From positions 1 to 38,691 of the forward strand of contig NZ_JACJRC010000041.1 of the NCBI RefSeq assembly GCF_014697025.1: a stretch of DNA of 38,691 bases, given 5' to 3'. Source of the stretch: Alkalinema sp. FACHB-956. GTDB lineage: Bacteria; Cyanobacteriota; Cyanobacteriia; Leptolyngbyales; Leptolyngbyaceae. The notes under the pieces were generated by a model. The model saw only the letters and a list, made by a program, of their open reading frames with translations, did not search any database and was not told where the DNA came from. A program made the position numbers and the translations under genes. Shown one piece after another: positions 7,201 through 38,691 of the stretch; position 1 is the stretch's first letter; each line of letters starts with the position of its first letter.

Positions 7201-9663
7201 ATGCAGCGCATAGACCAAGGCGTAGTCAGTTTCCCAGGCATTCGTTGGCAACAGTTCAATCCCAATTTGACAATAGGTCTGTGCAGCCTGATAGGCCGTT
7301 GAGAGTTTTGCCTTTTCTCCGGCTTGAAGATTCAACTGTGCTAATTGATGCTGTTGAGCAGGCAGTGAGATCGTTTGCTTGCCTAAATTGAGATGGTTAA
7401 CAATGTCAAAAATTTTGTCTCCCGATGGTTGCGCTTGGGGGTGTTGTAATAGGTCTTGCCATAACAATTGGCCAATTTGCCAATGGGTGACCGCTTTTTG
7501 TTCGGCTGGAATCAAGGAGTAAGCGGCTTGTTGGATGCGATCGTGCAGGAATCGATACACAGGATTGATACTGTTCTGAACATCAGATAGCGTGCGCGCT
7601 TCTACCTGAAAGAACTTGTAAACCTGAGTAGTGGGTATAATCAATCCCTCTTGCAATGCCTTCCATAGAGCCGTTGCCGCCTCCGTTGGGGCCTGCTCGG
7701 CCACGATCGCTAGGGTTGCTAAATCAAACTGATTCCCGACACAAGCGGCTAGCTTTAAGACAGACTGGGTCTCCTCTGGTAACTTCTGCAATTGCAAGGC
7801 CATAAACTCAACCACATCATCTGTGAGGGCGAGGGCATTGACTTGAGCCATGTCACATTGCCAATAGCCCTGATCGAGATTGAAGGTAATGCATCCATCC
7901 TCATGCAGTGCTTTGAGAAACTGGGTTGTGAAAAAGGGATTGCCTTGCGTTTTACGATCTACGAGTTGAGTCAGGGGTTGTGCCACTGTGCGATCGCACT
8001 GCAAGGTATCAGCAATCAGCCGATTGGTCTGCTCTAGGGCTAGTGGGGCCAGGGTAATGGTGTTGACGATCGTACCGACTGTTTTGAGTTCCTCGAGTGT
8101 CAGCATCAACGGATGGGCCGGGGAGACTTCGTTATCTCGGTAAGCTCCCAACATCAGCAAATAGCCATGGTCCTGCATCAGCAACTTCATCAACTGGAGT
8201 GATGCTAAATCGGCCCATTGTAAGTCATCGATAAAAATGACCAAGGGATGATGGGTTGTGGTAAAAACCTGAATAAACTTCTGGAACAGTAAGTTAAAAC
8301 GGTTCTGGGCTGCGGTACCAGAAAGTTTTGCGATCGCTGGCTGTGCCCCGATAATCTGCTCTAGTTCGGGAATCACTTCAATCAAGACTTGCCCATTTTC
8401 GCCTACTGCTTCTAAGATCTGTACTTTCCATTCGGCTAATTGGGCCTGGGACTCGGAAAGCAGTTGCCCCATTAAATCGCGCAATGCCTGGACAAATGCC
8501 GAGAGGGGAATGTTGCGATTGAACTGGTCAAACTTCCCTTTAATAAAATAACCCTGTTGCCGCGTAATGGGTTTATGCACTTCGTTGACCACTGCGGTTT
8601 TCCCAATTCCAGAAAAACCAGCCACTAGCATCAGTTCCGACGCACCCTGCGCCACTCGCTCAAAGGCATTCAGCAGCGTCTGGACTTCGGCTTCTCGTCC
8701 GTAGAGTTTTTCGGGGATGAGGAAGCGATCGCTCAAGTCTTGCTGGCCTAATTTAAACTCAGCGATCGCCCCCGTTGCTTGCCACTGGGTCAAACACTGT
8801 TGCAGGTCATGCTGGAGTCCGAGTGCGCTTTGATAGCGATCTTCCGCATTTTTCGCCATGAGTTTGGCGACGATCGCAGCGACCATTCCCGGCACCGCTG
8901 GATTGACCTGATCGACGGATACCGCTAATTTTGCGATGTGACAATGCACCAGTTCCATGGGATCGTCTGAGGCAAATGGTAACTGACCGCTCAACAGTTG
9001 GTACAGCGTTACACCCAGGGCATAGAAGTCAGCGCGATAATCAATACCGCGATTCATTCGTCCGGTCTGCTCGGGGGCTAGATAGGCCAGGGTGCCTTCT
9101 AAGATATTGGGGTTCTGGATCTCTTGGGTTTCCTTAGGGAGCAGGGAGGCAATGCTGAAGTCGATCAGTTTGACCTGTTTCGACTCAGGATGCATCAGGA
9201 TATTGGCGGGTTTAATGTCTTTGTGGATGACGCGGTGCAGGTGTAGATCGTGGAGGATCGTAGCCAGTTGCAGGGCGATCGCCAACACCTCTTCCCACTG
9301 GAGAGACTGGTGCTGAAGATATTGGCTTAAGGAAATGCCTCCCCAGTCTTCCATGATGAGGGCATAGCCATTACCCAGCGGTTCCAGACTCAAAGGTTGC
9401 ACAATCCCAGGCAGGTTGAGATTCTTGGCAATGGTATATTGGTTGCGGAACTGTACCAATTCGTTGAAGCTGGGGTACTCTTGATTGAGCACCTTAATCA
9501 CTACAGGTTGCTCTGAAATCACTACAGGTTGCGCTGACTTCTTCTTTAGGGCACGGTAAACGGTGGTGTGAGATCCGTTATAGAGAGTCTCAACCAAGTC
9601 ATAGTGAGGAAGCTGTACCGACACTGAAGACAGGGAACTGGCAGAGGAAGTCATAGGATTCAA
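4213..9663 (-). CDS. Giant Ser/Thr kinase-AAA ATPase-GAF-histidine kinase fusion
   Basis: This 1816-residue protein is of the cyanobacterial type that joins an N-terminal eukaryotic-like kinase to a C-terminal histidine kinase (HstK/multi-kinase type). The kinase domain (about 21-290) has VIK (K57), HKDIKPAN (147-154, D149), DFS in place of DFG (168-170) and APEQT. A LYGREAEV linker starts the AAA_16-like ATPase, with P-loop GFSGIGKT (349-356) and Walker B VIFIDDLQWAD (475-485). A long helical, TPR-like region fills about 640-1330. A GAF domain lies at about 1364-1530, then HisKA (H1563 in GVAHEINNP) and HATPase. No membrane segment is visible. A 7-residue tandem duplication (QPVVI twice) sits directly before K57. 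DFS at the DFG position is not unusual for this family and need not mean loss of activity. It is probably transcribed toward the two sensor kinases, with a 135-bp gap to the next gene. Confidence 0.92.
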   Translation of the reverse strand: MNPMTSSASSLSSVSVQLPHYDLVETLYNGSHTTVYRALKKKSAQPVVISEQPVVIKVLNQEYPSFNELVQFRNQYTIAKNLNLPGIVQPLSLEPLGNGYALIMEDWGGISLSQYLQHQSLQWEEVLAIALQLATILHDLHLHRVIHKDIKPANILMHPESKQVKLIDFSIASLLPKETQEIQNPNILEGTLAYLAPEQTGRMNRGIDYRADFYALGVTLYQLLSGQLPFASDDPMELVHCHIAKLAVSVDQVNPAVPGMVAAIVAKLMAKNAEDRYQSALGLQHDLQQCLTQWQATGAIAEFKLGQQDLSDRFLIPEKLYGREAEVQTLLNAFERVAQGASELMLVAGFSGIGKTAVVNEVHKPITRQQGYFIKGKFDQFNRNIPLSAFVQALRDLMGQLLSESQAQLAEWKVQILEAVGENGQVLIEVIPELEQIIGAQPAIAKLSGTAAQNRFNLLFQKFIQVFTTTHHPLVIFIDDLQWADLASLQLMKLLMQDHGYLLMLGAYRDNEVSPAHPLMLTLEELKTVGTIVNTITLAPLALEQTNRLIADTLQCDRTVAQPLTQLVDRKTQGNPFFTTQFLKALHEDGCITFNLDQGYWQCDMAQVNALALTDDVVEFMALQLQKLPEETQSVLKLAACVGNQFDLATLAIVAEQAPTEAATALWKALQEGLIIPTTQVYKFFQVEARTLSDVQNSINPVYRFLHDRIQQAAYSLIPAEQKAVTHWQIGQLLWQDLLQHPQAQPSGDKIFDIVNHLNLGKQTISLPAQQHQLAQLNLQAGEKAKLSTAYQAAQTYCQIGIELLPTNAWETDYALVYALHRHGAEAAYLSSDFDRAEALYQVALAQAQNPLDQAVIYRVQMTQYQLQGRNAEAIAIQRQSLELLGWSIPQEPESIQHCLDAEIASVEQFLQQQTIESILELPKMVDAVIAEQLRILQILFYAAWLAGQPTLALLALAKMTTLSLQYGNSDMSPFGYVGYGLIANALLKNATQAYQFGNMAVQLCEQFDNADVRGMTNFLFAADVHSWKRPLREADRYYEDAYKYGMEAGNWLTVGFMMMQSGSDRLTYGKNLEDLYAIAQAHAAFLHQIKSLENLDALTVGVLQPIRQLLGLTQTPFTFDDTHFREAEYLQKYCNTPYHLAWFYSVKIRHAYLFDQPDTYSGLIPHLSIIEATIPSHAKVPSSVFYVVLMHLVLLEQPPDETQQQGHWQSILPLEERLNHWQQDCPENIRHKCLLIQAEKARIHGYKAEAIDLYDHAIVSAKENGYLQEEALANELAAKFYLGWGKEKVAAGYLQEAYYGYARWGASAKVADLEKRYPQLLQPILQTNQQPLTVLETLASIAAPAYSLHSTSSKSSTRSNINHTFDFVTLLQVSQTLASTIELNELMQTLTQKMIENSGADQCTLILCEDNQWQVRVMANLEQVILQSVPLEDNPSVPVKLIQYVKHSLTTVAIDDLKTDLPVIGDYLHHHQPKSVLCLPILNQGNLRAIVYLENRSTSGVFTNDRILILNVLCTQAAISLENAQLYQKAQRYAQQLEQSQLQIVQSEKMASLGNLVAGVAHEINNPIGFLNGSINNAQDYVQDLLDYIALYQQHHPQAASPVQEKADDIDLEFLTEDLPKLLNSMQGASDRIKGISTSLRTFSRADTEHKVRANLHEGLDSTLLILKYRLKANEFRPAIEVIQDYGNLPEINCFPGQLNQVFMNILANAIDMFDEMAQTQSFNALQANPQKITIRTTTDSNQIQIQISDNGKGMTETVKSRIFDHLFTTKGVGKGTGLGLAIARQIVEKKHGGKIFCTSTLGLGTTFMVKIPQS
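9496..9537. repeat. 21-bp tandem duplication inside the giant kinase gene
   Basis: Two adjacent 21-bp copies (9496-9516 and 9517-9537) differ at one base. On the coding strand they give two seven-residue blocks, S-A/E-QPVVI, immediately before the catalytic lysine of the kinase domain. The frame is kept. Confidence 0.9.
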
Positions 9664-37493: not shown

Positions 37494-37683
37494 GAGTCCG
37501 CGTCGAGTCTCGAATGACATTGATGATGCGATCAGGAGAGCGATCGTAATAACCACAGCTTTGAAACGCAAGCTGAAATGCTAGAAAGACAGAGAATAGA
37601 AAGATATTTTTCTCTCTGGGTAGTCAGTATAACGACTAATACTTTGCAAATACTAAGCATTAACAGTGTGACTCAAAGCTGTA

Positions 37684-38235
37684 TCATAAAGCATCTGCGG
37701 TTTCTCGCACAGACTGAAGAAACTGAATGATCTCTTGAACAACTGTAGCTTTACGGAGAACTTCAAGATCTTCATTTGTGAGTTGATCGACCAATTGAGC
37801 CTGAGTCTGAAAATTCTTCGATTGAGAAATCAATAGCTTTAAAGCTTGCCAAGGCTGGTACACTGCCAGACTCAGCACATCTTGAGAAGGCACATACCCG
37901 AGTAGACGCGAAAGTAGGGAAACATCTTGAAAAAAAATGATTTCGAGAGTAGGAACAGCCAGTATTACTTTAACTGGTGTATTCACAGCAATGTTTCCAA
38001 CAATTTCTTCAGTATCTTTAAGTCGTTGTTCAACTTGCTCCGGGATAGTTGCATCAGCATCCGCCACGATTGCAACAGGAGATTGTCGGCGAACAATCAA
38101 AGATCGAGCTAGCGATTTGACAGCAGAGAGTCCACCCGCCGCAACAATCTCAACATTGCTAATGAATTCTTCTGGAAGCAGACGTTTCAATAGTTGTGCG
38201 TCACGCTCCCCCTCACATACAATGTAAGCTGTCAT
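37684..38235 (-). CDS. TOPRIM-domain protein, probable nuclease partner
   Basis: The 183-residue protein begins with a TOPRIM fold: MTAYIVCEGERD (E8 or E10 as the catalytic glutamate), then a helix, VEIVAAGGLSAVKSL, and VAIVADADA with the DxD pair D59/D61. A VPTLEIIFF segment (94-102) resembles the proline-and-glutamate motif seen after the core in OLD-like and lone TOPRIM proteins. The rest is helical. There is no ATPase, zinc or DNA-binding domain. TOPRIM proteins of this type occur in phage-defence systems next to ATPases or nucleases. Its ATG overlaps the TGA of the upstream nuclease gene (ATGA), so the two were probably translated together. The gene lacks CGATCG, unlike the rest of the window. 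It appears intact, but its upstream promoter is cut off by the IS3-type element. Confidence 0.75.
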   Translation of the reverse strand: MTAYIVCEGERDAQLLKRLLPEEFISNVEIVAAGGLSAVKSLARSLIVRRQSPVAIVADADATIPEQVEQRLKDTEEIVGNIAVNTPVKVILAVPTLEIIFFQDVSLLSRLLGYVPSQDVLSLAVYQPWQALKLLISQSKNFQTQAQLVDQLTNEDLEVLRKATVVQEIIQFLQSVRETADAL

Positions 38236-38569
38236 GGAATATCCCTCTCTCTAACATCATAGTCAGGTAGCCCATCTTCTACGCATACGCGATATTTAAG
38301 AAGGAGCAGTTCACAGATCGACTCTCGCTCTAAAGCATATTTTAGCTCTTCTCCACTCCAAAGCAGAATTGTCTGAGGCAATGAAAAGTAGGAGAGATGG
38401 CGGGCTTGATCAGTAAATCCTGTTCGACTAAAGACCAGACCAAGCGTACTGGCAGGACGACGCAAAAGTTGATTACGCAGTTTAGCGATTGGTGCGATGT
38501 CAACATTCACCCTATCGGCAAAGTCTTTGCTCTCTACTAGACAAGACAGCCCTGAACAGTAAACTACGG
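38232..38569 (-). pseudogene. PD-(D/E)XK (Mrr-like) nuclease gene truncated by an IS3-type element
   Basis: The host-derived frame encodes about 112 residues from VVYCSGLSCLVESKDF to VRERDIP. A LVESK segment gives the E-x-K half of the PD-(D/E)XK motif. The following part, with QLLRRP and GLVFSRTGFT, resembles Mrr-type restriction endonucleases. The aspartate half and any N-terminal recognition domain would be further right, but the IS3-type end starts at 38570 and replaces them. An in-frame TTG inside the IS end could allow a shortened product with the element's residues, without a full active site. The gene joins the TOPRIM gene by an ATGA overlap. Confidence 0.7.
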
Positions 38570-38691
38570 TGGACCCCAAAAACTGGACAGGTAGTTAAGC
38601 TCTGAAAACTCAAACTGTGATAGGAGTATTTCATGGGCAATAAACGCAAACAATACAGCGCCGACTTCAAAGCCAAAGTAGCCTTAGCGGC
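38570..38691 (+). mobile_element. Left end of an IS3-family element (runs off right edge)
   Basis: TGGACCCCAAAAACTGGACA (38570-38589) is a typical IS3-family inverted-repeat end starting with TG. It is followed after 43 bases by the transposase orfA. It sits inside the nuclease gene. The other end and target duplication are beyond the window. Confidence 0.85.
38633..38691 (+). CDS. IS3-family transposase OrfA, N-terminal part
   Basis: The ATG at 38633, with AGGAG nine bases upstream (38622-38626), starts MGNKRKQYSADFKAKVALA. The K-(R/K)-x-Y-S-x-x-F-K-x-x-V-A-L-x-A pattern is the start of the HTH_8-type OrfA of IS3-family elements. It continues past the right edge. Confidence 0.88.
   Translation, partial: MGNKRKQYSADFKAKVALA

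What the first reader, a model, noticed from the sequence alone, without database searches (positions are those of the whole stretch)
37684..38579. Two-gene PD-(D/E)XK nuclease plus TOPRIM module, possibly an undescribed defence system
An Mrr-like nuclease fragment (LVESK, GLVFSRTGFT) is joined by an ATGA overlap to a small lone TOPRIM protein (VCEGERD, VADADA). I know of TOPRIM paired with an ATPase (OLD, Gabija) and of Mrr alone. A compact Mrr-type plus small TOPRIM operon is not a system I can name. The strict translational coupling suggests a complex.
Basis: partly seen in the sequence, partly recalled or inferred. Interest (0 to 1): 0.75.

Follow-up and report, generated by a model that had tools for sequence, protein, structure and literature searches.

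The report
Nuclease–TOPRIM gene pair, broken here
A small mobile pair of bacterial genes, a DNA-cutting enzyme and a partner protein of the OLD/Gabija fold, recurs across several phyla; in the genomes compared the cutter is often lost while the partner stays, not the reverse, which suggests that the partner keeps the cutter in check, and here the cutter has been split by a jumping gene.

Summary
On the minus strand a PD-(D/E)XK nuclease fragment (38567-38232) overlaps a 183-aa TOPRIM gene (38235-37684) by ATGA. The nuclease is not whole: its first ~75 of 186 residues, with catalytic E and D, are replaced by a multicopy IS3-like element that ends the contig. Intact orthologues exist. The pair recurs: 62 of 66 loci found with the nuclease have a TOPRIM gene directly downstream (41 with the same overlap, one a natural fusion), in nine phyla. 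It travels as a ~1.2-kb cassette (93% DNA identity between genera whose other matching genes are 67-76% identical). The TOPRIM model matches the catalytic region of Class 2 OLD nucleases, without the ATPase. In the cyanobacteria sampled, 37 loci have both genes intact, 23 an intact TOPRIM gene with a broken or absent nuclease, none the reverse. Nuclease catalytic residues are nearly invariant, but 27 of 93 TOPRIM proteins have changed E or DxD. I favour a toxin/immunity-like module: nuclease as effector, TOPRIM protein as restraint. Toxicity and defence are untested; defence-island enrichment was not clear. No named system for the pair was found in PADLOC 2.0.0 or the papers searched.

The parts
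37684..38235 (-). TOPRIM gene (183 aa): OLD-type TOPRIM with helical extension, no ATPase domain. E8, D12, D59, D61, T96, E98 correspond by motif order (my reading) to Bp OLD E400, E404, D455, D457, T506, E508; a match for K562 was not sought
   Evidence: ORF; AF2 pLDDT 94, pTM 0.88; best PDB neighbours OLD C-terminal regions, Z 12.5 and 12.0; metal ligands from PMC6755086 passages
38232..38567 (-). 3' remnant of the PD-(D/E)XK (Mrr_cat) nuclease gene, residues ~75/76-186; keeps ExK (VESK) and Q, lacks the N-terminal catalytic E and D
   Evidence: 94% identical to the intact orthologue in L011
38232..38235 (-). ATGA overlap of nuclease stop and TOPRIM start
   Evidence: the same -4 overlap in 41 of 62 loci
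38565..38691 (.). end of a multicopy insertion element (IS3-like, family name recalled) that interrupts the nuclease gene and ends the contig; transposase-like start at 38633 on the + strand
   Evidence: seven further copies at 99-100%, one more at 91%
37677..38567 (-). remaining part of the mobile two-gene cassette; DNA homology ends 7 bp past the TOPRIM gene in one other genus (G028) and in its last codons in another (G012)
   Evidence: 93% over 880-891 bp; whole cassette 1234 bp between L027 and L028

Best explanation
A mobile two-gene toxin/immunity-like module. Gene 1 is a ~185-aa PD-(D/E)XK nuclease, the effector, harmful to its host if unrestrained. Gene 2, coupled through the stop/start overlap, is an OLD-type TOPRIM protein without an ATPase; it binds the nuclease and holds it back, releasing it on some trigger (inferred: phage infection or other foreign DNA). 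The OLD two-metal site may add DNA or metal sensing or a second cutting activity in most members, but seems not to be needed for the restraining role, since paired members exist with the site eroded or the helical region missing. In this genome an insertion element has split the nuclease, leaving an orphan TOPRIM gene. Shown: pairing, overlap, fusion, predicted folds, cassette mobility, one-sided loss, uneven conservation of the two active sites. Inferred: toxicity, neutralisation, complex formation, trigger, defence role.
For: Pairing: 62 of 66 loci found with the nuclease; in the other four the nuclease is a fragment or only a weak relative. 41 of 62 have the -4 overlap and 55 of 62 lie within -4 to +8 bp (TOPRIM start chosen by script). 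Natural fusion in a Caldithrix MAG. N and T distances correlate, r 0.90 over 51 loci, 0 of 1000 permutations (shared ancestry alone gives a high r). One-sided loss, cyanobacteria, 386 phylum genomes and 217 genomes of one family (overlapping sets), both queries on each (lesions read): both intact 37, T intact with N broken or absent 23, N intact with T broken 0, one unresolved at a contig end. Lesions are diverse: insertion, stops at four places, frameshifts, truncations, internal deletion, absence. The genes are of equal length (~183 codons), so equal loss would be expected without selection. N: E 78/78, D 78/78, E 77/78, K 77/78; T: E..DxD in 66 of 93; 21 of the 27 others sit beside a full-length nuclease. 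Short T proteins that lack the helical region pair with intact N (L148, L149); in Bp OLD, removing the helical domain impairs both nicking and cutting (PMC6755086 passage).
Against: No experiment. The loss asymmetry was tested in cyanobacteria only, mostly one family; related genomes may share lesions and I placed none on a tree. One of the 23 (G318, second locus) is ambiguous. I counted the short T type as intact (3 of the 23, 2 of the 37); counted as broken it would give 20 T-only and 2 N-only. An own benefit of the TOPRIM protein would give the same asymmetry; T in nuclease-less loci is still constrained (nearest-partner dN/dS median 0.36 of 19 against 0.24 of 33, non-independent). 66 of 93 T proteins keep E..DxD, unexpected for a pure inhibitor. 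In Bp OLD single changes of metal ligands had no visible effect on cleavage, and only about 9 of the 93 have two of the three residues changed, so many 'degraded' sites may still work. AF2 gave no interface score; the fusion model (pTM 0.77) does not test binding of separate chains.
Confidence: 0.5

Rival explanations
1. A two-nuclease restriction/defence complex: the PD-(D/E)XK and the OLD-type TOPRIM subunits both cut invading DNA, as a compact Gabija- or type IV-like system without an ATPase.
For: TOPRIM fold nearest to OLD and Gabija GajA (Z 12.5 and ~10); nuclease half near R.BspD6I small subunit, FokI, Can2 and MspJI/AspBHI; mobile cassette; the L018 pair faces an ORF that looks like a DNA methylase (my reading); one plasmid copy has type I R-M genes nearby; 66 of 93 TOPRIM proteins keep E..DxD; some PADLOC families are commoner near than far.
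Against: 27 of 93 TOPRIM proteins changed E or DxD, 21 of them beside a full-length nuclease, though single changes may be tolerated; PADLOC families in all 257 near against 225 far; does not by itself explain the 23:0 loss.
Confidence: 0.25
2. The TOPRIM protein has its own useful role (DNA processing or regulation) and the nuclease is a dispensable addition; the asymmetry reflects selection to keep the TOPRIM gene.
For: Intact TOPRIM orphans without a nuclease remnant in the fetched stretch (G494, G274, G229, G543); TOPRIM still constrained there.
Against: Nuclease active site nearly invariant and its dN/dS lower (0.07-0.19) than that of the TOPRIM gene (0.18-0.24) in the close trio; both are patchy together: TOPRIM profile in 55 of 217 genomes, nuclease profile in 56 (the latter with some other Mrr-like proteins).
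Confidence: 0.15
3. A DNA-repair or recombination accessory pair (OLD/RNase M5/primase-like TOPRIM with an EndoMS-like nuclease).
For: PD-(D/E)XK neighbours include EndoMS and a Pyrococcus repair endonuclease, Z ~9.
Against: Patchy, horizontally moving, frequently broken; repair genes are usually stable (general knowledge).
Confidence: 0.07

Closest known systems
OLD family nucleases, Class 2 / Gabija GajA (C-terminal catalytic region)
   Same: Whole TOPRIM protein aligns with the OLD C-terminal region (164 of 183 residues, Z 12.5) including the helical part; metal ligand motifs in the same order
   Different: No ABC ATPase domain; partner is a PD-(D/E)XK nuclease, not a helicase; E or DxD changed in 27 of 93
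PARIS (AriA/AriB) and AbiL (AbiLi/AbiLii)
   Same: Two-gene operons with a separate TOPRIM protein; PARIS chain 8ux9_A Z 9.6
   Different: There the partner is an ATPase and the TOPRIM protein is the toxic effector (PARIS: PMC12839542 passage; AbiLii and TOPRIM_OLD toxins with AAA antitoxins: PMC10440598 passages); here the TOPRIM protein looks like the restraining partner
Mrr_cat restriction nucleases (PF04471)
   Same: Mrr_cat above Pfam's cut-off in 3 of 5 intact nucleases; E-D-ExK-Q
   Different: Only ~185 aa, with the Mrr_cat match over most of it; TOPRIM neighbour in 62 of 66 loci
HEC-01 (PADLOC candidate)
   Same: Weak match of the TOPRIM protein to HEC-01B (E 3e-4)
   Different: Nuclease matches no PADLOC model; HEC-01A-like protein among 2 of 150 near neighbours only
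Type II toxin-antitoxin modules of reverse order (recalled)
   Same: Two small overlapping genes, effector first, one-sided loss, cassette mobility
   Different: Partner is an OLD-type TOPRIM, not an antitoxin fold known to me; toxicity untested

Membership tests
Mrr_cat PD-(D/E)XK nuclease | Profile match to PF04471 | tested here: met
   L011, L010, L018 above cut-off 21 (24.8, 23.4, 26.1 bits); L012 and L014 below it (19.9, 18.5); the window fragment itself has no match
Mrr_cat PD-(D/E)XK nuclease | E, D, ExK catalytic residues | tested here: met
   78/78, 78/78, 77/78, 77/78 in relatives; the window copy has lost E and D with its N-terminus
OLD family nuclease | OLD-type TOPRIM plus helical region | tested here: met
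   Z 12.5, 164 of 183 aligned to 6nk8; one Foldseek hit at E <= 0.001, 6njv, an OLD C-terminal region
OLD family nuclease | N-terminal ABC ATPase in the same protein or operon | tested here: not met
   183-aa protein; ATPases turn up near the pair only singly
Gabija | GajA with GajB helicase | tested here: not met
   No ATPase domain in the TOPRIM protein; no helicase among immediate neighbours that I recognised, and none in the 25 families printed
PARIS | AriA ATPase + AriB TOPRIM | tested here: not met
   Partner is a nuclease; AriA-like model matches 6 of 150 near and 2 of 137 far proteins
HEC-01 | HEC-01A + HEC-01B | tested here: inconclusive
   Only weak HEC-01B matches of the TOPRIM proteins; HEC-01A matches 2 of 150 near proteins
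Toxin-antitoxin module | One gene toxic alone, other neutralises | not testable with these tools
   Only indirect: 23 T-only against 0 N-only loci
Anti-phage defence system | Protects against phage / sits in defence islands | tested here: inconclusive
   PADLOC families 257 near against 225 far in all, single families up to 6 near and 2 far (only the top 25 are printed); no phage assay

The most novel reading that the evidence does not exclude
An OLD-type TOPRIM, elsewhere the cutting effector of Gabija, PARIS and AbiL, has here become the immunity or sensor subunit of a separate PD-(D/E)XK nuclease: a toxin/immunity class in which the restraining protein is itself a (sometimes dead) nuclease that could sense DNA or metal directly.
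Probability: 0.4. Interest if true: 0.75.

Novelty: new variant of a known kind. Interest (0 to 1): 0.58.

Why it matters
Lone small TOPRIM proteins in genomes are hard to interpret. If this one restrains a nuclease, it reverses the role that TOPRIM proteins have in AbiL-type TOPRIM/AAA pairs, gives a compact two-gene model of nuclease control with a natural single-chain version, and yields profiles that can annotate both proteins in nine phyla. The prediction is simple to test by co-expression.

Tried and rejected
Rejected: that the nuclease ORF in the window is complete (intact orthologues are ~75 residues longer at the N-terminus; the ORF start at 38579 lies in the insertion element). Rejected: a consistent third gene (immediate flanks of the 62 loci differ; AAA ATPases, ABC transporters and SbcC-like proteins turn up only singly or in near-relatives). 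No support for phage carriage: no match in 50,697 phage records or in IMG/VR with the window TOPRIM protein (close relatives only) or the nuclease alignment; plasmids: 3 of 72,556 records. PDB sequence searches gave nothing at E below 0.8. Chloroflexota: of 331 genomes, six matched the nuclease profile and only the centre itself is of this family, so the loss asymmetry could not be tested there; the TOPRIM search on that phylum was not run.

Dropped before the 37/23/0 count: TOPRIM hits G254 and G232 (E 6.5e-5, 5.5e-4) and Mrr-like hits in frames mostly of 220-370 aa (E 7e-11 or weaker) as other families; the relatives search, where only the TOPRIM query was run; both-broken loci G452, G562, G624, G491, G504, G591:C29; nuclease fragments alone G620 (second), G616:C32, G575:C1162 (contig end), G128:C29 and a second one in G489; a TOPRIM fragment in G600:C1124; G235, where the contig ends inside the TOPRIM gene. 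For the neighbour scan 19 of the 62 paired loci were left out by hand, mostly as near-duplicates, and 11 of 161 near proteins (ten short ORFs and one over-long one) were dropped to meet the limit. Census one search counts only distinct rows of at least 150 columns from all loci held, orphan TOPRIM genes included, so short-type TOPRIM proteins are not in the 93 and six of the 27 changed ones lie beside a broken or absent nuclease.

Full report
WHAT IS IN THE WINDOW. The window is contig C41 of a 6.16-Mb genome in 59 contigs. On the minus strand near its right end lie a 183-aa ORF, 38235-37684, with VCEGERD and VADADA, and just upstream an ORF that carries LVESK and GLVFSRTGFT; stop and start overlap as ATGA. 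The last ~127 bases of the contig are the end of a repeated element with seven further near-identical copies. The upstream ORF therefore starts in the element: only residues 75-186 of the nuclease remain, 94% identical to the intact orthologue, and the N-terminal half was not found elsewhere in the genome (the DNA query had no positive control in that genome). The break falls between the catalytic D (EQVDG) and the ExK motif. The remnant still shows low dN/dS (0.11-0.19 against two intact relatives), so the insertion looks recent.

THE FAMILY. Among 97 relatives searched with the TOPRIM protein (own genome included), 11 matched; several loci show the intact pair. A profile of six nucleases found 66 loci in the collection of 84,980 species genomes; in 62 a TOPRIM relative follows on the same strand. 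In L088, L089 and L091 the nuclease is a fragment and L092 is only a weak relative (29% identity). Of the 62, 41 have the -4 overlap and 55 lie between -4 and +8 bp. Tree labels give nine phyla: Cyanobacteriota, Planctomycetota, Chloroflexota, Thermodesulfobacteriota, Acidobacteriota, Bacteroidota, Myxococcota, Calditrichota and Pseudomonadota (many are metagenome bins); one Rhizobium plasmid carries it. In a Caldithrix MAG the two are one 357-aa frame. Distances of the two proteins correlate (r 0.90, 51 loci, 0 of 1000 permutations), as co-inheritance predicts.

MOBILITY. The window's cassette is 93% identical over 880-891 bp to cassettes in two other genera, at places with other flanks, while the other matches of at least 200 bp between this part of the window and those two genomes are 67-76% identical. 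Between L027 and L028 the shared block is 1234 bp: about 121 bp before the nuclease, both genes, 4 bp after. I saw no transposase in the block. In the nuclease tree the phylum labels are clustered (as low in 0 of 200 shuffles) but need 15 changes where 8 is the least, with Planctomycetota inside a cyanobacterial group; deep forks are poorly supported, so transfer between phyla is likely but occasional.

FOLDS. The window TOPRIM model (37 rows, pLDDT 94, pTM 0.88) is closest to the C-terminal regions of Burkholderia and Xanthomonas OLD proteins (Z 12.5 and 12.0, 164-165 residues), then T. scotoductus OLD (11.5), GajA (about 10) and a PARIS chain (9.6); unrelated lumazine synthases reach 9.8, so only the OLD rows stand clearly out. 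Foldseek has one hit at E <= 0.001, also an OLD region. E8, D12, D59, D61, T96 and E98 fit Bp OLD E400, E404, D455, D457, T506 and E508 by motif order, my reading of passages of PMC6755086. The fusion model (25 rows, pLDDT 91.9, pTM 0.77) puts the nuclease half near AF1548 (13.1), the R.BspD6I small subunit (12.9), Can2 (12.1) and FokI (11.6) and its TOPRIM half again near OLD (12.6). Pfam: Mrr_cat above cut-off in 3 of 5 intact nucleases; the TOPRIM protein only below cut-off (DUF3226, Toprim_3, OLD-like_TOPRIM).

WHICH GENE IS NEEDED. In 386 genomes of the phylum and 217 of one family (overlapping sets) both profiles were run and lesions read on fetched DNA. My classification: both intact 37 loci; TOPRIM intact with nuclease broken or absent 23; nuclease intact with TOPRIM broken 0; one unresolved at a contig end (G235); six loci with broken TOPRIM and no intact nuclease; five nuclease fragments alone. 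The 23 include one ambiguous nuclease (G318 second locus, 155-aa frame) and three short-type TOPRIM proteins (G600, G615, G598:C341); two of the 37 (G598) have the short type too. If the short type were called broken, the count would be 35, 20 and 2. Lesions include the insertion here, stops at four places (G547, G545, G616, G121), frameshifts (G564, G600), truncations, an internal deletion (G350) and absence (G494, G274, G229, G543), so many are independent, though I did not place them on a tree; single stops and frameshifts could be sequencing errors, which should hit both genes alike. In these sets each intact nuclease whose downstream DNA was held had a TOPRIM partner. Under equal loss of two genes of equal length, 23 to 0 is very unlikely; even a dozen independent events would be.

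WHICH ACTIVE SITE IS NEEDED. Among distinct rows of at least 150 columns, the nuclease has E 78/78, D 78/78, E 77/78, K 77/78, Q 75/78; the TOPRIM protein has E and DxD together in 66 of 93. Of the 27 others, 21 sit beside a full-length nuclease (for example L047, L048, L062, L063, L067) and about 9 have two of the three residues changed, some conservatively. Against a strong reading: in Bp OLD single changes of these ligands had no visible effect on cleavage (PMC6755086 passage). Short forms without the helical region also pair with an intact nuclease (L148, L149). In the close trio dN/dS is 0.07-0.19 for the nuclease and 0.18-0.24 for the TOPRIM gene. TOPRIM genes whose nuclease is gone show slightly higher dN/dS (medians 0.36 of 19 and 0.24 of 33 nearest-partner values read; non-independent, weak).

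INTERPRETATION. The nuclease is the constant effector; the TOPRIM protein is required beside it, perhaps not always as an enzyme. That fits a restraint or immunity role, as for orphan antitoxins or orphan methyltransferases (recalled analogies). It differs from AbiL and TOPRIM/AAA pairs, where the TOPRIM protein is the toxin and the AAA protein neutralises it (PMC10440598, passages read). Toxicity, binding and trigger are inferred.

DEFENCE? PADLOC scans of 150 near and 137 far neighbours matched 257 and 225 families; only the top 25 of each are printed. Single families reach 6 near (AriA and mads_3 6, PDC-S03, mads_2 and mads_8 5 each) and 2 far. Such models may also match ordinary ATPases and kinases (inference), so I call enrichment unclear. 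Pfam shows Uma2 and AAA_21 in 5 of 150 each, and otherwise, among the 25 families printed, mostly transport and metabolic domains. The Leptolyngbya plasmid copy has type I R-M genes and alkaline-phosphatase-domain (perhaps PglZ) pieces nearby. Defence is plausible but not shown.

NOVELTY. PADLOC gives only weak HEC-01B matches for the window and three other TOPRIM proteins (best E 2.5e-6, L018), with one weak AbiLii match, and none for five intact nucleases. Paper searches (listings and beginnings of abstracts) and passages of PMC12839542, PMC10440598, PMC3710099, PMC10952713 and PMC10568477 speak of TOPRIM with ATPases, and of PD-(D/E)XK alone or with other partners, but in what I saw not of this pair. 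The library lacks most subscription journals, so absence there is not absence from print.

Noticed in passing
window 38565-38691 and L002-L008: A multicopy insertion element (IS3-like) whose near-identical copies lie at the ends of seven other contigs of this genome: the assembly breaks at its copies.
   Followed up: partly
window 37601-37657: A ~57-bp stretch just downstream of the TOPRIM gene recurs elsewhere in the genome (95% at C33, shorter matches on three other contigs): a dispersed repeat.
   Followed up: no
L027 ~7720-7815 and ~9215-9300: Similar direct repeats flank the cassette within about 0.3 kb on both sides in Scytolyngbya (seen by eye); possibly a dispersed repeat family linked with its insertion.
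   Followed up: no
L148, L149, L150, L073, L085, G598: A short type of the TOPRIM partner lacks most of the OLD-like helical region (about profile 105-143) yet stands beside the nuclease; a distinct subtype.
   Followed up: partly
G350:C11:71850-72500 (L200): An internal deletion fuses the first ~44 nuclease residues in frame to a whole TOPRIM protein (222-aa frame).
   Followed up: no
L149 634-17021: On Leptolyngbya plasmid1 the pair is followed by pieces annotated as alkaline phosphatase domain (perhaps PglZ), with type I R-M genes about 8-14 kb upstream: possible remnant of a BREX-like island.
   Followed up: no
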